A stretch of DNA of 18,141 nt from Candidatus Eiseniibacteriota bacterium (GTDB lineage: Bacteria > JAFGKV01), in assembly GCA_025453925.1 (NCBI GenBank), contig JALOPK010000022.1, positions 1 to 18,141 of the forward strand. Reading direction: 5' to 3'. Position numbers and translations under genes: made by a program. Below, piece by piece: positions 84-17,816 of this stretch. The notes below the pieces were generated by a model. It did no database searches, had not been told where the DNA came from, and saw only the letters and a list, made by a program, of their open reading frames with translations. The first letter of the stretch is position 1. Each line of letters opens with the position of its first letter.

Positions 84-650
84 TCAGCGTTCTCTCGCGA
101 GCAGCGTGAACCCTCCCGGCTTCGCGGCTGAACTCGTGCTGCTGCGCTCGAACTCGCCCACCGTATTTGATTCGGGCGATGTCTGCACCGCATTCCGCGC
201 CTTTCCCTTGAAGTAGTAGGTCTGCGCAGAGTTCCCGATGCCATCCGTGAAGTCGTACTGCACTGTCGGTGCACTCACCGTGTGCCACGGTGTCGCGCTC
301 GGCGTGAAGTACGCGCTCGTGCTCCGGTACAGGTCGTACACCGTCGCCAGCGCCACCGCGTCCCAGCTCAGGCGTGCCGTGGTGGAACTCACTAGGGTGA
401 TCGCCAACACCATTGCGTCCAGTGGCGCCAAGCTCGCCCCATGCCAGAACCCGTGGTACGTCTGGTAGGTGCTGCCCGCTGACACCCCCACGGGCGACGA
501 TTGGGCGAGGGTGCCGGTCATTGCATACGTCGTCCCGCTCATTGCCCCACCTGCAGATCCAATGACCGACTCTCTCAGGAAGTACGTCTGGGCTGAGGCT
601 GCCCCGCAGAGCAGCACCATTGAGATCAACGTGACAGATGTGCTTCTCAT
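84..650 (-). CDS. Secreted fibronectin III-like protein, partner of the repeat protein
   Basis: A 188-aa exported protein of unknown role. Residues 1-20 form a signal peptide (MRSTS, hydrophobic core, AASA before Gln21). Residues 22-75 carry a G-G-x-M-S-G-T-T-Y-x-M-x-G-T-x-x-Q-S pattern ending in Y-H-G-F-W, a module common at the N-terminus of secreted proteins in candidate-phylum genomes. Residues 78-165 form a fibronectin III-like fold (LSWDAV, YDLYRS, YYFKGKARN, SPESNTVGEF). The ATG overlaps the stop of the 840-aa repeat-protein gene in an ATGA, with GGAGG just upstream inside that gene, so the two are translationally coupled. No catalytic motif is visible. A structural or adhesion role at the cell surface is inference; the partnership with the upstream gene is firm from gene structure. 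Confidence 0.85.
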   Translation of the reverse strand: MRSTSVTLISMVLLCGAASAQTYFLRESVIGSAGGAMSGTTYAMTGTLAQSSPVGVSAGSTYQTYHGFWHGASLAPLDAMVLAITLVSSTTARLSWDAVALATVYDLYRSTSAYFTPSATPWHTVSAPTVQYDFTDGIGNSAQTYYFKGKARNAVQTSPESNTVGEFERSSTSSAAKPGGFTLLARER

Positions 651-3169
651 TGCGATCCTCCGGTGATTGGCGAACTCTCGCAGTCGGTGTTGCGCGGCGC
701 CCCGACGTTCACCCTCCGCCTCGCGCCCGACTCCTCACTCGCCTTCTCACGGAGTTCGGGGTACAGATACGCGTCCCTCTCCGCCGCCTTGCAGTAATCG
801 AGACGCTTCGTCTCATACCCCTTGCGCTTCGCCACCACGCGGTAGCAGAACCCTACGGTGCTGGCGCCGTCCTCCTGCTCGATCACATCGAAACCGGTCG
901 CACCGCGCTCCACGTAGACGCCGTGACACCGACCTGAGAGCTCGACGAACACCTTTATCGGATTCGCCGCACCGATGGTCACGGTCTCCAGGAAGACCGG
1001 GTCCAGTTCGATGTGACAGCGCCCATTCACAAGCTGCCCTTCCCCGAAGTCCTCGAACCAGTTCTCGGGGCTCTCCTGGCAGTAGAGGAGGGTGGGTCCT
1101 TTCGATGTCTTCACGATGCAGCTCTTGGTGCCGGAAGCAGCGAAGTTGCCGGAGGAATAGACACCATATCCACTCGTCGAATTGACCACGCCATAGACGC
1201 CGTAGGTGGTACCCGTGCTGGCAATGGCGAGGGACCAGAGGCCATGCCCTTCCGTGGAGTAGCTCACGAATTGCCCACCATAGGTCCAGCCGTTGGTCGC
1301 ACTCGCCTTGCCATAGACCCCCGCACCTGAGGTCGACGCGCTCGTTCCGTAGACTCCGCGGGTAGTGCCCGTAGTCGCGGTTGCCTCGCCAATGACGCCT
1401 CGTCCCTCGTAGGAGTGGCTTTGCCCATAGACGCCAGGACCCGAGGTCCAGTCCGCCGTCGTGCAGCCCCACACGCCTATCCCGTCTGCCGCGTAGCTCT
1501 CGAACTTCCCACCGTAGCTGTGACCGGTCGTCGCGGTCGCCTTGCCATGGACACCGCACCCATTCGGCGATGCCGTTTCGCCCAGCACGCCATACGTGAG
1601 ACCTGTCGAGGCTGTCGTGTACCCGAACACGCCTATTCCCTCCGTCGAGACGTTTCCTCCGAATACTCCGCAGGTCAGACCGGTTGTCGCGGTGCAGTGC
1701 CCCCATACGCCTCTACTAAAGGCCTCAGTGGCCGTCGCCTCTCCGATCACCCCATACTGGTGCGACGTGCCTACCACCCCTGCACCGGCGTCCGTCGAGC
1801 TGCTCTCGCCGTACACGCCATAGGCAAACCCGCTCATCGCCGTTGCCTTGCCGACCACGCCGCGCCCCCCATCCGATCGCGTCTCACCGCATACGCCGTC
1901 GACTACCCCAGTGGTCGCATTGGCCACCCCATACACGCCCTTCCCTTCCGTCGACTCACTTCTGCCGTATACCCCAGAGACCGTGCCGATGGTCGATGTC
2001 GCCAATCCGACAACGCCGGTCCCTGACGCGGCGCTGCTCGAGAAATGACCGCCTGGCGCAGTTCCCGTTGTCGCGATCGCGCGTCCACACACGCCCACCC
2101 CTTCGGGCGAGTAGTCCTCGAAGAGGCCGCCATAGGTTTGACCCGAATTGGATGAGGCGATGCCGTGCATGCCTCTGCCGCCGGTGGCTGAGGCCTCCCC
2201 GCGGACGGCGTCGGCGGCACCTGTGGTCGCCATAGCAGTACCGAGCACGCCGTAGCCGTTGGCTTCCATCCCGCACCCGCGGACGCCGTTCACGCCCTTC
2301 CCCTCCACTCCAACGCCGTTTGGCGAGGAACAGAAACCGTACACCCCTGTGGTCGATCCCGTACCCGACGTGGCGACACCTGAAACGCCCCACCCCCAAT
2401 TCGACAGGCACTTTCCGTACACCCCCCATGCGCCCTCACCGTACACCCCCCCGGCATCCTCGGAGGCGCTCGTTCCCTTTACTCCATACGCATCTCCGCT
2501 GGTGGCGGCGGCGTGCCCGTAGATCCCACTTCCATCGGATGAGTAGCTCACCCCATGCACACCGAAGGTGGCCCCCGTCTGGCTGGTCGCCACACCGTAG
2601 ACCCCTTGGCCGGCGGTTGACTGAATCGTGCCGTACACGCCCATCGTCGTCCCCGCCGTTGAGTGCGCATGGGCATATACCGCAACGCCAAGGTCTCCTC
2701 GTGTCTCGAAGTCGCCTCCAAATGCGTAACCGTTCGTGGAGCTGTTCCTCGCTCCGATCATCGCCTGGCTCATGTCGGATCCCTCGATCATCGTCCCGGG
2801 TACCAACCCGCTCGCCATATAGGCATAGCCGACGGAACCGAGCCGAACTCGGGGCGTCTGCAGATCGCCGCCGATCGTCACCTCCAACCACGCGTCACCA
2901 ACGAACGGATATCCGATGGGCGGCTGCGGAGGCCCGCCCAGCAACACGCTGAAGACACCGGCCGTGACTCCCACCGTCTGAGTTTCGCTGTCCCAGACAG
3001 GACTCCCTCCCGTCTCCTGTTCGTACAGCAGGAACTGCATGGAGTAGGGACCATCCGCTATTGGGTTCCCTCCCGTATCCGTCACCTTGCCCTGGTAGCT
3101 CATCATCTGGGGGATGTCGGCGGCGGCGAGAGTGCAGAGGACAGCGATCATGATCATCGCGTGTCGCAT
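647..3169 (-). CDS. Large secreted GVYG-repeat protein
   Basis: An 840-aa exported protein. The ATG at 3169 is chosen over longer options because a full AGGAGGT lies at 3174-3180 and a signal peptide follows (hydrophobic residues 5-17, Ala-Ala-Ala before Asp18). Residues 18-118 are a head domain (MSYQGKVTDTGG, then FLLYE, GVFSVLLGG and GDAWLEV) seen at the start of many long-repeat surface proteins. Residues about 145-675 hold roughly twenty copies of a 26-residue unit, G-V-Y-G-x-S-x-S-T-x-G-x-G-V-Y-G-x-A-x-A-T-T-G-x-T-x, which probably folds as a beta-solenoid or fibre. Residues about 680-795 form a conserved end domain (GTKSCIV, YCQESPE, GFDV, CYRVVAKRKGYE) resembling the cap found after such repeats. 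No peptidase S74 autocleavage motif is visible. Function is unknown; a surface fibre or adhesin is inference. Its stop overlaps the start of the next gene. Confidence 0.85.
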   Translation of the reverse strand: MRHAMIMIAVLCTLAAADIPQMMSYQGKVTDTGGNPIADGPYSMQFLLYEQETGGSPVWDSETQTVGVTAGVFSVLLGGPPQPPIGYPFVGDAWLEVTIGGDLQTPRVRLGSVGYAYMASGLVPGTMIEGSDMSQAMIGARNSSTNGYAFGGDFETRGDLGVAVYAHAHSTAGTTMGVYGTIQSTAGQGVYGVATSQTGATFGVHGVSYSSDGSGIYGHAAATSGDAYGVKGTSASEDAGGVYGEGAWGVYGKCLSNWGWGVSGVATSGTGSTTGVYGFCSSPNGVGVEGKGVNGVRGCGMEANGYGVLGTAMATTGAADAVRGEASATGGRGMHGIASSNSGQTYGGLFEDYSPEGVGVCGRAIATTGTAPGGHFSSSAASGTGVVGLATSTIGTVSGVYGRSESTEGKGVYGVANATTGVVDGVCGETRSDGGRGVVGKATAMSGFAYGVYGESSSTDAGAGVVGTSHQYGVIGEATATEAFSRGVWGHCTATTGLTCGVFGGNVSTEGIGVFGYTTASTGLTYGVLGETASPNGCGVHGKATATTGHSYGGKFESYAADGIGVWGCTTADWTSGPGVYGQSHSYEGRGVIGEATATTGTTRGVYGTSASTSGAGVYGKASATNGWTYGGQFVSYSTEGHGLWSLAIASTGTTYGVYGVVNSTSGYGVYSSGNFAASGTKSCIVKTSKGPTLLYCQESPENWFEDFGEGQLVNGRCHIELDPVFLETVTIGAANPIKVFVELSGRCHGVYVERGATGFDVIEQEDGASTVGFCYRVVAKRKGYETKRLDYCKAAERDAYLYPELREKASEESGARRRVNVGAPRNTDCESSPITGGSQ
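1145..2740 (-). repeat. Tandem 78-bp coding repeats (26-aa GVYG units)
   Basis: About 1.6 kb of the gene consists of degenerate 78-bp units, each encoding two half-units of the form GVYG-(S/T-rich) and GVxG-(A/T-rich, usually A-T-T-G). Some units are altered: GGxF replaces GVYG near residues 347, 373, 553 and 631, at roughly regular intervals. Protein spacing is much better conserved than the nucleotide sequence, which argues for old repeats kept by selection on the protein rather than recent slippage. Many long open frames in the other five frames here are by-products of this composition. Confidence 0.8.
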
Positions 3170-3537
3170 GGCGACCTCCTGGAGAGTGGTGCACGAACTT
3201 GACGAATGGACGCCTTGGCCGAGGGCAGGCCGGGCTTCCTTTCGCGCCTTGTCACGCCTCCACATAGCCGTTAGGCCTCGTTTTCTCGCTCGGGTCCGCG
3301 TTCTGAAGAGCGCATGGAAGGCCGGGCTTCGGCAGGGCCGCATCGGTTGACACCATGGAATCCGTCTCAGTGTCGGGTCAGAGCGCCGTTCGACGATGGG
3401 GGCCATGCCCGGGGCAGCACGCGCGAAGGCGGGGCCTGTCAGAGCGACCTGGCGCCTGGGCAGGTGCGATGACGCGCACCAGCCATACATTGGGAGACTC
3501 CTCACGACCGACAACCACGAATCGACGAGGTGATTGA
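3170..3537. other. Divergent intergenic region, no gene
   Basis: This 368-nt gap separates the minus-strand repeat-protein gene from the plus-strand methyltransferase and must hold both promoters. A TTGACA occurs at 3347-3352 on the plus strand, but no TATAAT-like box lies 16-18 nt downstream. A GGCCGGGCTTC word occurs twice (about 3228 and 3320). I see no convincing RNA gene. A 60-codon open frame at 3355-3537 lacks a ribosome site and looks like chance. Confidence 0.6.
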
Positions 3538-4284
3538 ATGACCGCCACTCCCCGTCTGTATGACGACCTGGCATGGCTGTGGCCCTTGTGGGGAGCTGCA
3601 GAAGGCGACTACGCTCTGTGGTGCGCTCAGGTTGTCCGTCTCATTCGGCAGTATGCCACCGGATCTCTCGGAACGATCCTGGACATCGGCTGCGGCGGCG
3701 GTAAGAACGCCTTCAACCTCAAGCGGCACCTCCAGGTGACGGGCCTTGATCTCAGTCCGGCGATGCTGGAGCTGGCCCGCGCACTGAACCCCGAGAGCGA
3801 GTTCCTCCAGGGTGACATGCGGAGCCTGGAACTCCGGAGACGGTTCGATTGCATCCTCCTGGATGACGCGATCACCTACATGGTGACCAGGGAGGACCTC
3901 GCGGCGGCCTTCGCGGGGGCGTTTCGTCATCTACGTTCCGGGGGTGTCATGGTCGTGTCGCCAGACGAAACCAAGGAGACCTTTCAGCAGAACCGCACCC
4001 GAGTATCGTACGCCGAGACGAAGGCAAAGCCGGAGAGCATCGACGTGGTATTCGTCGAGAATGACTACGATCCCGATCCGGCGGATGACCAATTCGACGG
4101 CACCTTGGTCTACCTGATTCGGGAGGCGGGCCGGCTCCGCGTCGAGACAGATCGCCACGTGCTGGGCCTGTTCCCCCTGGAGGTCTGGCGGACCACACTG
4201 CGATCCGCCGGCTTCGAGGTTCATGAGGAAGCCCCCGTGATGCCAGATACCGTCCAGCCGGTGTTCGTGTGCGTGAAGCCCTGA
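3538..4284 (+). CDS. Class I SAM-dependent methyltransferase
   Basis: A 248-aa Rossmann-fold methyltransferase using S-adenosylmethionine. Motif I is ILDIGCGGG at residues 47-55; GLDLS at 69-73 carries the acidic residue that binds the ribose hydroxyls; GDMRSL near 94 is motif III-like; and FDCILLDDAITYM near 106 is the post-II strand. The C-terminal half (residues about 140-248) holds an extra beta-rich insert as in small-molecule methyltransferases of the Methyltransf_25 type. The substrate cannot be read from the sequence. The ATG has GAGGTGATT just upstream. It heads a co-directional run of four genes, followed within about 26 nt by a membrane protein. Confidence 0.88.
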   Translation: MTATPRLYDDLAWLWPLWGAAEGDYALWCAQVVRLIRQYATGSLGTILDIGCGGGKNAFNLKRHLQVTGLDLSPAMLELARALNPESEFLQGDMRSLELRRRFDCILLDDAITYMVTREDLAAAFAGAFRHLRSGGVMVVSPDETKETFQQNRTRVSYAETKAKPESIDVVFVENDYDPDPADDQFDGTLVYLIREAGRLRVETDRHVLGLFPLEVWRTTLRSAGFEVHEEAPVMPDTVQPVFVCVKP

Positions 4285-10291: not shown

Positions 10292-10367
10292 GCACCCGTA
10301 GCTCAAAGGATAGAGCATCTGACTTCGGATCAGAGGGCTGCAGGTTCGAGTCCTGCCGGGTGTACCA
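10292..10367 (+). tRNA. tRNA-Arg (anticodon UCG)
   Basis: A full 76-nt cloverleaf with encoded CCA. Acceptor GCACCCG pairs with CGGGTGT (one G-U). The D arm is GCTC-AAAGGAT-AGAGC. The anticodon stem TCTGA/TCAGA holds loop CTTCGGA, giving anticodon TCG, which reads CGN arginine codons. The T arm is GCAGG-TTCGAGT-CCTGC. It stands alone, divergent from the ECF sigma factor gene. tRNA genes can be integration sites, but I see no 3'-end duplication in this window. Confidence 0.97.
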
Positions 10368-10567: not shown

Positions 10568-11137
10568 ATGTTCATCGGCTGCAGGCATCTGCGGGAGCTG
10601 CTTGAGAGCCAGCGCGAGATCATCGAGCGGCATGTCGACCGGCACAAGTGGTTCCGCCATATCGATAGTCGGGAAGCTGCCATCAGCGACTTCATCGAGA
10701 AGTTCGGTTGGATCATGCGGGAGTTCCACTGTACGCAGGTCTGCACCGATCGTACGGAATGCGAGCAGCCATCCCGCCTCACTAGTGATGGTCGTCTCCC
10801 CTACTCTCCTCCCCAGAGGCGCGAACACCCGATCTCGCCGTCAAGGCTCGAACTCATGCGTTGCGTGGAGGTGGCCGGCGATGGCCCCCTTGGCGACAAG
10901 CAGGCGTCTGCCCCTGCGTTCTTCTCCAGGTGTCGCCATCTGGATATGCTCCTGGAGAGCCAAGCCGACATCATCCAGCGACACCTCGAGCGCCATATGT
11001 GGTTCCGCCGCATCGACAACCGTGAGGAAGCCCTCAGGGATTTCGTGAGTGAGTTCGGGTGGGTCATGCGGGAGCTCTACTGCGGGAGTATCTGCGGCGA
11101 CCGGCGGGAATGCCCGGCCGAGCAGGATCGGCCATGA
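10568..11137 (+). CDS. Tandem-duplicated Cys/His module protein, function unknown
   Basis: A 189-aa soluble protein with two copies of one module, residues 4-65 and 121-182, about 60% identical (37 of 62 by eye) with no gaps. Each copy has C-R-H-L, L-L-E-S-Q, H-x3-H-x-W-F-R, D-F, F-G-W-x-M-R-E and C-x3-C-x5-C. Potential ligands keep the same spacing: C5, H7, H22, H26, C55, C59, C65 against C122, H124, H139, H143, C172, C176, C182, every one offset by 117. This pattern suggests bound zinc, iron or an Fe-S cluster, but I do not recognise a characterised family. The linker (66-120) has low complexity and its own Cys99. No signal peptide or membrane span is seen. GAGAGGG lies 9 nt before the ATG. 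It is alone between the tRNA and a secreted-protein gene. Confidence 0.8.
   Translation: MFIGCRHLRELLESQREIIERHVDRHKWFRHIDSREAAISDFIEKFGWIMREFHCTQVCTDRTECEQPSRLTSDGRLPYSPPQRREHPISPSRLELMRCVEVAGDGPLGDKQASAPAFFSRCRHLDMLLESQADIIQRHLERHMWFRRIDNREEALRDFVSEFGWVMRELYCGSICGDRRECPAEQDRP
10577..11113 (+). repeat. Intragenic duplication of a 62-codon module
   Basis: Codons 4-65 (10577-10762) and 121-182 (10928-11113) are two copies of the same module, 351 nt apart, separated by an unrelated 55-codon linker. Words such as GTGGTTCCGCC and GAGAGCCA are shared at nucleotide level, but third positions differ widely, so the duplication is not recent. Confidence 0.8.
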
Positions 11138-11425
11138 TGGTCAGTGCCATCGGGCATCGGTTGACAGTGATCCGCCGTCAGTAGGCCCCCGAGCCGAGTT
11201 TCACCGGCGCCTCGGCATCCCCAATTCGACTCCCACGCGGGAAATGCAGCAACCGAGCCGTGCCGACTCAGTCTTCATACCCCCCGGCTGCCTTGACTCC
11301 CGGATGAACTTGCGGCACTTTCCGTGCAGGTGCCAGGGGCCATGTCATGCCTGGCCCCTGGGCGGCCGGGAGGATGTCCGCGTCGATGCCGCTCGACGCG
11401 TGATCCCACACACCAGGAGGTGGCC
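11138..11425 (+). other. Upstream region of the secreted calcium-type repeat protein
   Basis: These 288 nt hold no convincing gene. TTGACA at 11161-11166 and TTGACT at 11293-11298 are -35-like but lack good -10 boxes at the right distance. The main structure is the inverted repeat at 11333-11361, listed separately. The ribosome site CCAGGAGGTGGCC ends directly before the ATG at 11426 and is nearly the same as the one before the repeat-protein gene starting at 3169. Confidence 0.5.
11333..11361 (+). repeat. Perfect 10-bp inverted repeat in a gene leader
   Basis: CCAGGGGCCA (11333-11342) and TGGCCCCTGG (11352-11361) form a perfect 10-bp stem with a 9-nt loop, 64 nt upstream of the secreted-protein start. 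It could be a terminator for the duplicated-module gene, a leader hairpin that stabilises or attenuates the next mRNA, or an operator. There is no T-run after it. Confidence 0.55.
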
Positions 11426-13534
11426 ATGGCTCAGGTTTCGTGGGCTCGCGTGGTCGGTTTGTGTCTCATCCGAATCTTGCTCTTCGCGGAGGTGGGGATC
11501 TCGGATCCCGCCCAGACAGCCCAGCGACGCTTTATCGTTCACGACAAGGGATTGCAGCAGTTAGGCATGGACAACCGGGGGGAGCTCGGGAACCCTGACG
11601 CGCTGCCCATATGGTTGCCGGAGCTTGAGTATCCCCGGGGTAGCGGCACTACTTTCCTGTTCTCTGCCGGGTTGTGGGTGGGAGGGATCAGAGACGGCGT
11701 GCCGATTGTCTCGGTGTGCACCGACGGTGACAACGGGACGAAGGAGTTTTCAGGTCAGGAGCTCGCGACACAGCCGGACCAGGAGAACTACAGCATCGAG
11801 AGCATCGGGTGGCTCGGGAAGAGCACTGATTCGCTCACCACGAGCGATCAGGAGTCGGCGCTGCTCGGCAGAGTCGAGACGCCATATGGCCAGTCCATCA
11901 ACATCGGGTGTGTCCACTACCTCGGCCTTGGTCGCTACGGCGTCGATGACGACGGCGACGGCCGAATCGATGAGGATCCCGCAGGCGACATCTCATGCGA
12001 CTACCAGGATAACGACGACGACGGGTTGTATGACGGGGAGGACTCTGATCTGGATGGCGACATGGTTCCCGGCAGCCGTGACGACGATGGTGACGGACTA
12101 ATCGACGAGGATGATGCCGCTCGTGCGCCTCAAGAGTTCCTTACGGTGTTTGCGGACACATGTGAGGCGTGTGTTGATCGCCCAGATAGCGATTGCGTGG
12201 TTCCGCTGGGAGTGCTTGTGGTGCAGCACTCATACCAGTGGTACGAGACGTTTGCGGATGATTTCATCCTCTGCAAGTACGATGTCCGGAATATCGGAGA
12301 AACGACACTTACGGGCGTGGCATTGGGAGTATTCGCTGATTTCGACGTGACCTTCCCGATGGATTGGGGTGGGTCGCCGGACAACATTACGTTCTTCCTG
12401 GACAGTCTCTCTATGGCAGTCGGGGCTGATAACGACTTCGACTATGGGCAACTCGCCGCGCGCTTCTTCGGCCTCCGGTTGATCGAGACTCCCCCGTCCC
12501 CGACTCCAGTCACCTATGCCAGCTTTGAACGCATGACCGGAGGAGACCCCACCAACAACGCCGGGAAGTACACGTGCATGACGTCAGGCGTCGTGGATCC
12601 TCCGTCAGATTATGCATGGGGGGATTGGAGGTTTCTGATCTCTGTTGGCCCTTTGGGTGACTTGCACCCCGGCGAATCGATGACAATCGTCTTCGCAATC
12701 GTCAACGGTGTGGAGGAGCAAGACCTGATCGATCATGCCATCTATGCCCGGAATATGTGGGAGAGTGGGTTGCTGGGACCATCGGCACCCGCGTCACCGG
12801 CCTTCACGGTGCGACCTGTCAACCGTGGCGCCGAGGTGTTATGGGCGGACAATGCGGAGCCCAGCATGGACCGGCTGACCGGGAGGCCGGACTTCCAGGG
12901 CTACCACATCTGGCGAACCGCGGACGGCATCCAATGGACGTTAGCGGCGAGCTACGATCTGCCCGACACGATTGGGCTCAATCTGGGCTGGCCGCCGGAC
13001 GCAAACGAGGATGCCGCGAACGAGAACGGGTACGTGTACGAGTACGTGGATGAGGGGCTGATGAACGGGGCGAGGCTGCGCTATGTGGTGACGGCGTTCG
13101 ACGATGGGCACAACGGGGATGGGATCAACACGGAAGCATGGGACCAGTACCATGATGGCACGGGCGTGCTGGAATCCGACCGATCGCCGGGTCTGCAGCA
13201 GGAGGTGGTGCCCGCTGAAGCCAGGGTGGCCGAAGGGTGCGTGGACAGTGTGTACGTCGTGCCGAACCCCTACATAGGCTCGTCAGTGCTCGATCGGTAT
13301 GGCCTGGATGGGCGAGGCGTGATCGAGTTCCGAGGGTTGCCACCGGTGTGCGCTATCGCGATCTACACACTGGCTGGCGATGTAGTGCGGGAGCTGGAGC
13401 ATGTGAATGGGCTGTCGTGGGAAGCGTGGGATGTGCGGAGCTCGGAGAACCGTGACGTGGCGGGGGGAGTCTACCTATACAGGATCTCCAGCGGAAGCAG
13501 GGAGCGCATCGGGAAGCTCGCGATCGTCAGGTAG
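11426..13534 (+). CDS. Secreted protein with Asp-rich calcium-type repeats and C-terminal sorting-like domain
   Basis: A 702-aa protein probably exported: residues 6-25 are hydrophobic after a short start (MAQVSWAR), a weak signal peptide. Residues about 45-170 resemble the N-terminal part of large secreted proteins in FCB-type bacteria (FLFSAGLWVGG). Residues 174-231 are Asp-rich, with DDDGDGRIDED, DNDDDGLYDG, DLDGDMVPG and DDDGDGLIDED, like thrombospondin type 3 or dockerin-type calcium loops. Residues about 450-595 hold a fibronectin-like part (FQGYHIWRT, YEYVDEG, RYVVTAFDDG). Residues about 606-702 (VYVVPNPY, IEFRGLP, IYTLAGDVVREL, WDVRSSENRDVAGGVYLYRI) match the FlgD Ig-like/type IX sorting-style end. 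The ATG has AGGAGGT 6 nt upstream; a longer frame from 11324 lacks one. No enzyme motif is seen. It lies alone and converges on the transporter genes. Confidence 0.85.
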   Translation: MAQVSWARVVGLCLIRILLFAEVGISDPAQTAQRRFIVHDKGLQQLGMDNRGELGNPDALPIWLPELEYPRGSGTTFLFSAGLWVGGIRDGVPIVSVCTDGDNGTKEFSGQELATQPDQENYSIESIGWLGKSTDSLTTSDQESALLGRVETPYGQSINIGCVHYLGLGRYGVDDDGDGRIDEDPAGDISCDYQDNDDDGLYDGEDSDLDGDMVPGSRDDDGDGLIDEDDAARAPQEFLTVFADTCEACVDRPDSDCVVPLGVLVVQHSYQWYETFADDFILCKYDVRNIGETTLTGVALGVFADFDVTFPMDWGGSPDNITFFLDSLSMAVGADNDFDYGQLAARFFGLRLIETPPSPTPVTYASFERMTGGDPTNNAGKYTCMTSGVVDPPSDYAWGDWRFLISVGPLGDLHPGESMTIVFAIVNGVEEQDLIDHAIYARNMWESGLLGPSAPASPAFTVRPVNRGAEVLWADNAEPSMDRLTGRPDFQGYHIWRTADGIQWTLAASYDLPDTIGLNLGWPPDANEDAANENGYVYEYVDEGLMNGARLRYVVTAFDDGHNGDGINTEAWDQYHDGTGVLESDRSPGLQQEVVPAEARVAEGCVDSVYVVPNPYIGSSVLDRYGLDGRGVIEFRGLPPVCAIAIYTLAGDVVRELEHVNGLSWEAWDVRSSENRDVAGGVYLYRISSGSRERIGKLAIVR

Positions 13535-16079: not shown

Positions 16080-16418
16080 ATGTTGGTCCTGAATGCGCAC
16101 AAGGCTGCCGACAAGGCTACGCCACATGGCGTGAGCGTCCGGCCGCTGCACGAGACTCAGCATGTCCAAATCGTCCACATCACCCTGGAGCCGGGGGAAT
16201 CGCTGAAACGGCATATCACCCCGGTTGACGCCTGCTTCTATGTCCTCGAGGGTCGGGGCATCGTTGAGATCGGCGAGGAGCGGCGAGCTTGCGTGGCCGA
16301 TGATCTCATCGCGAGTCCGGCCCGAATACCCCACCGCTGGCTCAACGAAGGCACCGCGACGCTGCGGATTCTCGTCGTGAAGACACCCCGTCAGACCGAA
16401 GCCTCCAGGATTCTTTGA
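16080..16418 (+). CDS. Small cupin-domain protein
   Basis: A 112-aa single-domain cupin. Motif 1 is GESLKRHITPVDACFYVLEGRG in pattern at residues 39-60, with H45 and E57 as likely metal ligands and T47 in place of the usual second His. Motif 2 is P80-x4-H85-x3-N89 (in DLIASPARIPHRWLNEG). Such cupins may bind Fe, Zn or Mn, or act as sensors; no substrate is evident. GAAGAGGTG lies 6 nt before the ATG. It is the first gene behind the operon promoter and is followed after 130 nt by the ferredoxin-like gene. In this setting a role in nitrosative or redox stress is inferred from the neighbours only. Confidence 0.88.
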   Translation: MLVLNAHKAADKATPHGVSVRPLHETQHVQIVHITLEPGESLKRHITPVDACFYVLEGRGIVEIGEERRACVADDLIASPARIPHRWLNEGTATLRILVVKTPRQTEASRIL

Positions 16419-16546
16419 GAACGACCTGGATGATTGGATGGCTGGACGGTTGTATGATTCGACGTTCGATGTTGGATGTTCAGTGCCCCCACCACTTCAT
16501 CCATCCAATCCTCCATCATTCCCGCATTCCATCATTCGAGGTTTTC
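16419..16546. repeat. Low-complexity intergenic element with opposed halves
   Basis: The 130-nt gap between cupin and ferredoxin genes is built of short words. The left half is rich in TGGATG/GATGTT (including GTTCGAT-GTTGGAT-GTTC), and the right half in CATCC/ATTCC/CATCATTC. GATTGGATGG (16432-16441) and CCATCCAATC (16501-16510) are perfect inverted arms, so the transcript could fold into a long hairpin. I recall similar word-repeats between genes in several environmental bacteria, but no named family. The end supplies the ribosome site GAGG of the ferredoxin gene. Confidence 0.6.
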
Positions 16547-16548
16547 CC

Positions 16549-17334
16549 ATGCCAGTTCGACAGATCATTCGTATCGACGAGGAGAAGTGCGACGGGTGCG
16601 GCCTGTGCGCTACCGCATGTGCAGAGGGCGCCATCGCCATCATCGACGGCAAGGCACGGCTTGTCAGCGAGACCTACTGTGACGGTCTGGGTGCGTGTCT
16701 CGGCGAGTGTCCGCGCGGCGCCATCACGATGGAAGAGCGGGAAGCACCCGCGTTCGACGAGGAGGCCGTGATGCACGCCAAGGCCGCGGCGCCTCCGCCG
16801 AAAGCCGAGCCCCTTCCCTGCGGGTGCCCGGGCAGTCAGGTGCGAGCAATCACCGCGTGCGAGTGTTCCGAGTCGCCTGCGGTCGCGTCGACGGAGGATG
16901 CGCCCTCCTGCCTGCGCAACTGGCCCGTTCAAATGAAGCTGGTGCCGGTCAGCGCGCCCTATCTCCGCAACGCGGATCTGGTGATCGCCGCAGACTGCGT
17001 GCCCTTCGCCTTTGCCAGTTTTCACCAGCGCTTCCTGCCTGGTCGAGTGCTGCTCGTGGGCTGTCCCAAGCTCGATGACGCAGGGTTCTATCGTGGCAAG
17101 CTGGCCGACATCTTTCGACTGAACAACATCCGGTCCCTCGAGGTCGTGCACATGGAGGTTCCGTGCTGCAGCGGCCTCGTGCGTCTGGCACTCGGGGCTG
17201 CCGCGGATGCGCACGCCTGCATTCCCGTGACGCTTACAAAGATCGGCATCGCCGGGGACGTGCTGGAATCGCACACCGTGGCGGCATCTCCCCTGTGCGG
17301 CCAGGACCCCCCTGCCCGGACGAACGGGCAGTAG
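16549..17334 (+). CDS. Hcp-associated ferredoxin-like iron-sulfur protein
   Basis: A 261-aa soluble protein. Residues 5-60 form a bacterial ferredoxin domain: C14-x2-C17-x2-C20-x3-C24 is complete, while the second set has C44, C50 and C54 but Leu47 in place of one Cys, so with the matching Cys elsewhere it could hold one [4Fe-4S] and perhaps one [3Fe-4S] or other cluster. A Pro/Ala linker follows, then PCGCPGS near residue 98 and a conserved domain from about 120 (LRNWPVQMKLVPVSAPY, ADLVIAADCVPFA, LLVGCPKLDD, VVHMEVPCCSGLVRL) rich in Cys. I recognise this arrangement from proteins encoded beside hybrid cluster proteins; an electron-donor role to Hcp is likely but inferred. The ATG at 16549 has GAGG about 8 nt upstream. 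It ends 11 nt before the Rrf2 gene. Confidence 0.88.
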   Translation: MPVRQIIRIDEEKCDGCGLCATACAEGAIAIIDGKARLVSETYCDGLGACLGECPRGAITMEEREAPAFDEEAVMHAKAAAPPPKAEPLPCGCPGSQVRAITACECSESPAVASTEDAPSCLRNWPVQMKLVPVSAPYLRNADLVIAADCVPFAFASFHQRFLPGRVLLVGCPKLDDAGFYRGKLADIFRLNNIRSLEVVHMEVPCCSGLVRLALGAAADAHACIPVTLTKIGIAGDVLESHTVAASPLCGQDPPARTNGQ

Positions 17335-17345
17335 TCAGGGCGGCC

Positions 17346-17816
17346 GTGGATCGCGTTCTCTCCATCTCCGACGCGGCCAGCCTCGGGTTGCACGCTATGA
17401 TGCTGCTCGCGCGAAGCGATCAGGATGCGCTCGTGAGCGCCCGTACGTTGGCTGGCGAGCTGGACGCCTCAGAAGCGCATCTCGGGAAGGTGCTGCACCA
17501 ACTGACGAAGTCGGGGCTCCTCCGTGCGCGCCGCGGCCCCCACGGTGGCTTCCGTCTCCGCCGCCCTGCGAATGAGGTCACTTTGCTCAACGTCTACGAG
17601 GCAATCGAAGGGCCGCTGTCGACTGCCACCTGCCTCCTCGGCCGTCCACGATGCGACGGACGATCCTGCGTGCTCGGCGGCCTGCTGGAATCCGTTCAGC
17701 ACACCGTCCGCAACCACCTTCAGTCCAAGCGCCTCTCCGACTTCCGGAGTGCGCACGTGTCACCGATTCTGGGTGCGGCAGAGACGTCGCCCCTATCCAT
17801 GGAGGTCCGAACATGA
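17346..17816 (+). CDS. Rrf2-family Fe-S transcriptional regulator
   Basis: A 156-aa DNA-binding regulator. The winged helix-turn-helix is at about residues 8-75 ([38 protein letters not shown]), typical of Rrf2 proteins. Three cysteines, C96-x6-C103-x4-C108, occupy the place of the Fe-S ligands of IscR and NsrR, so it probably senses NO, oxygen or cluster status. The start is a GTG at 17346, 11 nt after the ferredoxin-like gene, with the weak ribosome site CAGGGCGG; no better start lies near the first helix. Its TGA overlaps the ATG of hcp. The inverted repeat over the operon promoter is the likely binding site. Specificity for NO (NsrR-like) rather than Fe-S status is inferred from the hcp neighbour. 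Confidence 0.88.

What the first reader, a model, noticed from the sequence alone, without database searches (positions are those of the whole stretch)
10568..11137. Two identical-spaced Cys/His modules in one unrecognised protein
Seven potential metal ligands in copy 1 (C5, H7, H22, H26, C55, C59, C65) recur in copy 2 at exactly +117 with no gap over 62 residues and about 60% identity. The invariant set, with H-x3-H and C-x3-C-x5-C, looks like a metal or Fe-S site. A duplicated form may hold two metal centres in tandem or form an internal dimer. I know of no characterised protein with this module.
Basis: seen in the sequence. Interest (0 to 1): 0.62.

Follow-up and report, generated by a model that had tools for sequence, protein, structure and literature searches.

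The report
Duplicated metal-stapled helical hairpin protein
The window holds a two-copy version of a small, undescribed Cys/His protein family that also occurs singly in one family of Patescibacteria and in tailed phages; it looks like a helical hairpin held at one end by a Cys cluster, probably metal-binding, and its cellular job is unknown.

Summary
ORF 10568-11137 encodes 189 aa with two 62-residue modules, 37/62 identical at exactly +117, and all seven named Cys/His recur. The gene is conserved and coding: the same-genus homologue is 71% identical and differs mostly at third codon positions.

The module is a real family with no match in Pfam, NCBIfam, PHROGs, PADLOC or the PDB. I found 33 copies: 4 in two Fermentibacteria-type genomes, 9 in one Patescibacteria family (7 of 9 genomes), and 20 in 12 IMG/VR contigs, 5 of which carry a terminase. 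Tandem forms arose at least three times.

The AlphaFold2 model (pLDDT 81) is a two-helix hairpin. It puts C5, H7, C55, C59 and C65 at one end and H22, H26 near the turn, roughly 25 Å away by helix rise. Eight phage copies lack every Cys yet keep H26-K-W, D41-F, W48 and E52/D52. So there are two layers: a dispensable Cys pole, probably Zn or Fe-S, and a conserved core. H7 is not invariant.

Function is unproven. Several neighbours are RNA-related, which is suggestive but post hoc. I judge it a new protein family of moderate interest.

The parts
10568..11137 (+). Gene of the tandem Cys/His hairpin protein, 189 aa, pI 6.3, 22.5 kDa
   Evidence: homologue in the same genus
10580..10762 (+). Module 1 (residues 5-65): C5-x-H7 ... 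H22-x3-H26-K-W28 ... D41-F42 ... F46-G-W48 ... E52 ... C55-x3-C59-x5-C65
   Evidence: family alignment; AF2 hairpin
10763..10930 (+). Linker between modules, residues 66-121, about 56 aa; low-confidence stretches 69-85 and 107-118, one predicted helix 93-103
10931..11113 (+). Module 2 (residues 122-182), same seven Cys/His at +117
   Evidence: groups with copy 2 of the same-genus homologue, 99/96 support
10292..10367 (+). tRNA-Arg(TCG) gene ending 200 bp upstream of the module gene; association with the protein is only suggestive
11324..13534 (+). 736-aa protein of unknown family, next to the module gene here and, in swapped order, in the same-genus genome; part of the conserved neighbourhood, link to function unknown

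Best explanation
This is a tandem-duplicated member of an undescribed family of roughly 60-80-residue helical-hairpin modules shared by a few bacterial lineages and tailed phages. Each full module is two antiparallel helices. The Cys pole (C5, C55, C59, C65, often helped by H7) joins the N-terminus of helix 1 to the C-terminus of helix 2, most likely by binding one Zn or an Fe-S cluster. A second, separate conserved core (H22-x3-H26-K-W28 with D41-F42, W48 and E52) lies from the turn to mid-hairpin. It forms the packing or interaction surface and possibly a weaker His/Asp metal site. The tandem form would act as a covalent pseudo-dimer of a protein that is otherwise a single-module unit, and I think it most likely serves as a metal-dependent adaptor or regulator rather than an enzyme. 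Shown: the duplication, the family, its distribution, the conservation, and loss of the Cys pole as a set in one phage clade. Predicted: the hairpin. Inferred: metal binding, pseudo-dimer, adaptor role, phage-mediated spread.
For: Halves 37/62 identical, score 232 against shuffle maximum 67. Single-copy relatives in Patescibacteria and phage contigs. AF2 single-module model pLDDT 81, helices 7-30 and 36-59 in A8 numbering, i.e. protein residues 6-29 and 35-58, which puts C5/H7 and C55/C59/C65 together and H22/H26 at the other end. Cys set lost together in 8 of 8 second phage modules while H26/K27/W28/I32/D41/F42/W48 stay invariant. Tree: Fermentibacteria copies pair across species (99/93 and 99/96); G391 copy 2 pairs with another G391 gene (100/98), not with its own copy 1; phage Cys-less copies form one group (100/98); so three separate tandem events. 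Five of 12 phage contigs carry a terminase. No known-family match.
Against: No metal was measured. No coordinates were available, so distances come from helix boundaries. pTM is only 0.54, and an alignment of 17 sequences is shallow. The tandem model is poor (pLDDT 66, pTM 0.51), so a pseudo-dimer is not shown. Fold searches returned nothing usable. H22 follows the Cys pole in part (D in 7 of 8 Cys-less copies), so the two layers may not be fully independent. Nothing directly shows an adaptor or regulatory role.
Confidence: 0.5

Rival explanations
1. One multi-ligand metal or Fe-S site per module built from all seven Cys/His.
For: All seven recur in both copies and H22 is strictly kept in the 25 Cys-bearing copies but becomes D in 7 of 8 Cys-less ones, so H22 is partly coupled to the Cys.
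Against: The predicted hairpin separates H22/H26 from the Cys by about 17-21 helical residues, roughly 25-31 A. H26 is kept in all Cys-less copies, and H7 is missing in several relatives.
Confidence: 0.12
2. An RNA- or tRNA-linked accessory factor, for example a metal-dependent partner of tRNA or RNA end-processing enzymes, used by phages and a few bacteria.
For: tRNA-Arg 200 bp upstream in the window; tRNA-Gly 73 bp away in a 16S-tRNA cluster in L078 and tmRNA 206 bp away in phage L059; CysRS-module-Dus with gaps of 23 and 29 bp in L077, AspRS beside the module and a tRNA-editing domain two genes on in L072/L073; in a group of phage contigs a gene set with DUF6267 and, where sequence allows, a polynucleotide-kinase-like gene. 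Only 4 of 252 ORFs sampled in the Patescibacteria lie within 250 bp of a tRNA.
Against: The pattern was noticed afterwards and the neighbour classes are broad. The sampled base rate covers tRNA genes only and rests on 3 tRNAs. Neighbours are not conserved between groups. Cys-bearing modules are neutral to acidic (pI 4.7-7.1), which does not favour direct RNA binding. tRNA genes are also common insertion sites.
Confidence: 0.2
3. A purely structural disulfide- or zinc-stapled hairpin, functionally like a small structural or decoy protein, with the conserved core only for folding.
For: Cys at both ends of a helical hairpin resembles stapled hairpins of the twin CX3C type (from general knowledge); the Cys pole can be lost.
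Against: H26-K-W and D41-F stay near-invariant across very diverged copies, including Cys-less ones, more than folding alone usually requires. The proteins have no obvious export signal by eye, so stable disulfides in the cytoplasm are unlikely.
Confidence: 0.12

Closest known systems
WhiB-like [4Fe-4S] proteins (Wbl; some are phage-encoded)
   Same: Small, four conserved Cys, found in bacteria and phages (general knowledge)
   Different: WhiB has C-xn-C-x2-C-x5-C followed by a G[VI]WGG turn; here it is C-x49-C-x3-C-x5-C with the conserved Trp before the Cys trio, plus H-x3-H. No member matches any WhiB model at E<=1.
Small Tim chaperones and other twin CX3C / CX9C stapled helical hairpins
   Same: Helical hairpin with Cys at both ends (here predicted)
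   Different: N-terminal side here is C-x-H, not CX3C; the setting is the bacterial or phage-infected cytoplasm; no Pfam match.
Treble-clef or zinc-ribbon small proteins
   Same: Small Cys/His proteins likely to bind zinc
   Different: Predicted all-helical, no C-x2-C knuckles and no beta hairpin; no Pfam zinc-ribbon match for any member.
DUF6267 / phrog_455 gene neighbourhood of Kyanoviridae-type phages
   Same: In a group of phage contigs the module gene lies just upstream of a DUF6267 gene
   Different: DUF6267 is a neighbour, not a homologue. In the two cultured-phage regions read, no comparable gene is annotated in that position, and tblastn finds no module in INPHARED.

Membership tests
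WhiB-like proteins | C-xn-C-x2-C-x5-C with a downstream G[VI]WGG turn | tested here: not met
   Alignment shows C-x49-C-x3-C-x5-C with W48 upstream of the Cys trio
WhiB-like proteins | Match to the curated family model | tested here: not met
   No WhiB match among 15 members scanned against Pfam or NCBIfam at E<=1
Twin CX3C small Tim-type hairpins | CX3C on both helices | tested here: not met
   Only the C-terminal side has C-x3-C; the N-terminal side has C-x-H
Twin CX3C small Tim-type hairpins | Helical hairpin | tested here: inconclusive
   Predicted hairpin with pLDDT 81 but pTM 0.54; not solved
Fe-S or Zn metalloproteins in general | Bound metal in purified protein | not testable with these tools
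   Only conservation of Cys/His is shown
The HKW / Cys-pole module family defined here | H26-[KMR]-W28 ... D41-F42 ... [FY]-[GA]-W48 ... E52 hairpin core | tested here: met
   Both window copies carry it; W48 and F42 are invariant in all 33 copies
The HKW / Cys-pole module family defined here | Cys pole C5, C55, C59, C65 | tested here: met
   Present in both window copies; 23-25 of 25 Cys-bearing copies; absent as a set in 8 phage second modules

The most novel reading that the evidence does not exclude
A new class of metal-dependent adaptor carried by tailed phages and captured by Fermentibacteria and a Patescibacteria family, which acts on tRNA or RNA end metabolism. One Cys-bearing module senses metal or redox state, and a second, Cys-less basic module in phages contacts nucleic acid or the partner enzyme.
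Probability: 0.1. Interest if true: 0.75.

Novelty: new variant of a known kind. Interest (0 to 1): 0.47.

Why it matters
It defines a protein family that the libraries searched do not hold (Pfam, NCBIfam, PHROGs, PADLOC, PDB) and that crosses between phages and two very distant bacterial groups. It contains a natural experiment: copies that have lost a whole Cys cluster while keeping the rest of the module. That makes the role of the Cys pole and of the His-Trp core separately testable with small, easily expressed proteins.

Tried and rejected
Pfam, NCBIfam, PHROGs, PADLOC and PDB sequence searches gave only chance-level matches, for example TscT, BEX, PBDC1 and a designed coiled coil. The first viral hits L012-L015 share only a YCGYICSVR string in unrelated frames and were rejected. 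Plasmid and INPHARED phage tblastn found nothing. Searches of 386 diverse bacterial genomes and of samples of the Patescibacteria phylum (379) and class (380) found no carrier beyond the two groups; scores of 0.005-0.05 were short chance matches. The single genome-contig scan used narrow patterns, so the cellular distribution is a lower bound. Foldseek and VIA-align gave no usable match. An alignment of the His half alone was too variable for a pattern search. The tandem AF2 model was too weak to judge packing. The link to the phage gene set was followed into two cultured phage regions without finding a counterpart.

Full report
What is in the window. The ORF at 10568-11137 (+) encodes 189 residues with two modules at residues 5-65 and 122-182. 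Residues 5-66 and 122-183 align without a gap at +117 with 37/62 identities, and C5, H7, H22, H26, C55, C59 and C65 recur in the second copy, while H31 and H54 do not. The score of the two halves (232) is far beyond 2000 shuffles (mean 26, SD 5, maximum 67). The same-genus genome G001 (contig JAFGKV010000294.1, titled Candidatus Fermentibacteria) has a 71% identical tandem homologue. Codon differences of 44/32/98 at positions 1/2/3 show selection on the protein.

Family and distribution. Profile searches starting from these copies found a single-module protein of 79 aa in a Patescibacteria genome (L008, titled Candidatus Uhrbacteria). The family occurs in 7 of the 9 held genomes of that genome's family, in none of the other genomes sampled in its order, class and phylum, and in none of about 384 other bacterial genomes. 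The third genome of the window's phylum, G002, lacks it. The collection-wide scan used narrow patterns, so carriers may have been missed. In viral contigs, iterative searches converged on 12 IMG/VR contigs. Five of these, of 31-192 kb, also encode a terminase large subunit, so the family is carried by real tailed phages. Two phage contigs come from metagenome 3300035698, one of those assembled from stratified Ace Lake, Antarctica (PMC8542988). No cultured phage in INPHARED has it.

Conservation separates two layers. I aligned 33 copies with hand-picked limits. Among the 25 Cys-bearing copies C55 and C59 are invariant, C65 is in 24, C5 in 23, H22 in 25 and H26 in 24; H7 is in only 19. Eight second modules of phage proteins lack all Cys, yet keep H26-K27-W28, I32, D41-F42 and W48 in 8 of 8, and E52 or D52 in 8 of 8. 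In them H22 is D in seven and H in one, and R51 is lost. These Cys-less copies are also basic (pI 8.0-9.9), whereas Cys-bearing copies have pI 4.7-7.1. The Cys pole is therefore lost as a set, and the His-Trp/Asp-Phe/Trp core does not depend on it. H22 is partly coupled to the Cys.

Predicted structure. AlphaFold2 on module 1 with 17 aligned sequences gave mean pLDDT 81.2 and pTM 0.54, with helices 7-30 and 36-59 in A8 numbering, one more than protein numbering. In an antiparallel hairpin this places C5/H7 beside C55/C59/C65, and H22/H26 near the turn opposite D41, about 17-21 residues (25-31 A by helix rise) from C5. I had no coordinates, so this distance is an estimate. The tandem model is poor (pLDDT 65.9, pTM 0.51), so an internal dimer is not shown. 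Fold searches found nothing significant.

History of the tandem. A maximum-likelihood tree of the modules (72 columns, so weak in its depths) pairs copy 1 with copy 1 and copy 2 with copy 2 across the two Fermentibacteria species (99/93 and 99/96), with all four together at 93/90. The duplication is thus older than the species split and specific to that lineage as sampled. G391 copy 2 groups with a separate G391 gene (100/98) rather than with copy 1, and the phage Cys-less copies form their own group (100/98). Tandems arose at least three times.

Neighbours. In phage contigs L052, L053, L054, L055, L057 and L058 the module gene lies between a roughly 155-180-aa gene (phrog_2086-like in L057) and a roughly 750-aa or longer DUF6267/cytidylyltransferase-like gene (in L054 with one further gene between), followed in most by a gene whose L057 member resembles polynucleotide kinase. 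L056 was too short to examine. Cellular neighbours differ from genome to genome. Several are RNA-related: tRNA-Arg 200 bp upstream in the window, a 16S-tRNA cluster (L078), a phage tmRNA (L059), and CysRS with Dus, or AspRS, next to the module gene. In sampled contigs of the Patescibacteria family 4 of 252 ORFs lie within 250 bp of a tRNA. With 2 of 8 module loci this close, the naive probability is 0.007, but the pattern was noticed afterwards and the sample held only 3 tRNAs, so I treat it as a lead.

How it most likely works. I favour a small helical hairpin whose ends are joined by a metal bound at the Cys pole, with the conserved His-Trp/Asp-Phe core as the functional surface, made into a covalent pair in this genome. 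Metal identity, metal binding and partner are not shown.

Known or new. The family has no match in Pfam, NCBIfam, PHROGs, PADLOC or PDB sequences. It resembles known small Cys/His and stapled-hairpin proteins in kind but fails the membership features tested for WhiB and twin CX3C proteins. I rate it a new variant of a known kind, with an open function.

Noticed in passing
window 11324-13534; L079 8045-10585: The 736-aa protein next to the module gene has a homologue (72% DNA identity) beside the module gene in the same-genus genome, but the order of the two genes is swapped; nothing else on the 11.6 kb compared is shared.
   Followed up: partly
L059 4418-4771 (-): A tmRNA gene (Rfam 117.8 bits, predicted tag ADFGQLRQAA) on a 31-kb phage contig that also has a terminase, 206 bp from the module gene.
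   Followed up: partly
L046 366-440, 1206-1277, 2356-2451, 5729-5824: Four tRNA genes on a 33.7-kb phage-like contig; ARAGORN reads one with a four-base anticodon (taag).
   Followed up: no
L045 4376-4828, 7514-8257, 8385-8921: A 74-kb phage contig carries Hsp20 and separate DFP-type and flavoprotein-type (CoaBC-like) genes near the module gene.
   Followed up: no
L052-L058, e.g. L057 108-5768: Conserved phage gene set: phrog_2086-like, module, DUF6267 with a KIDG ligase-like motif plus a cytidylyltransferase-like domain, and a PNK-like/nucleotidyltransferase protein; looks like a nucleic-acid end-processing set.
   Followed up: partly
window 647-3574 (-): 975-aa protein with many GVYG...S..G.GV.G.A-type repeats and no Pfam match, possibly a repetitive surface or fibre-like protein.
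   Followed up: no
window 16080-17816: Cupin, ferredoxin-domain protein and Rrf2-type regulator genes in a row, an ordinary redox-type cluster near the finding but about 5 kb away.
   Followed up: no
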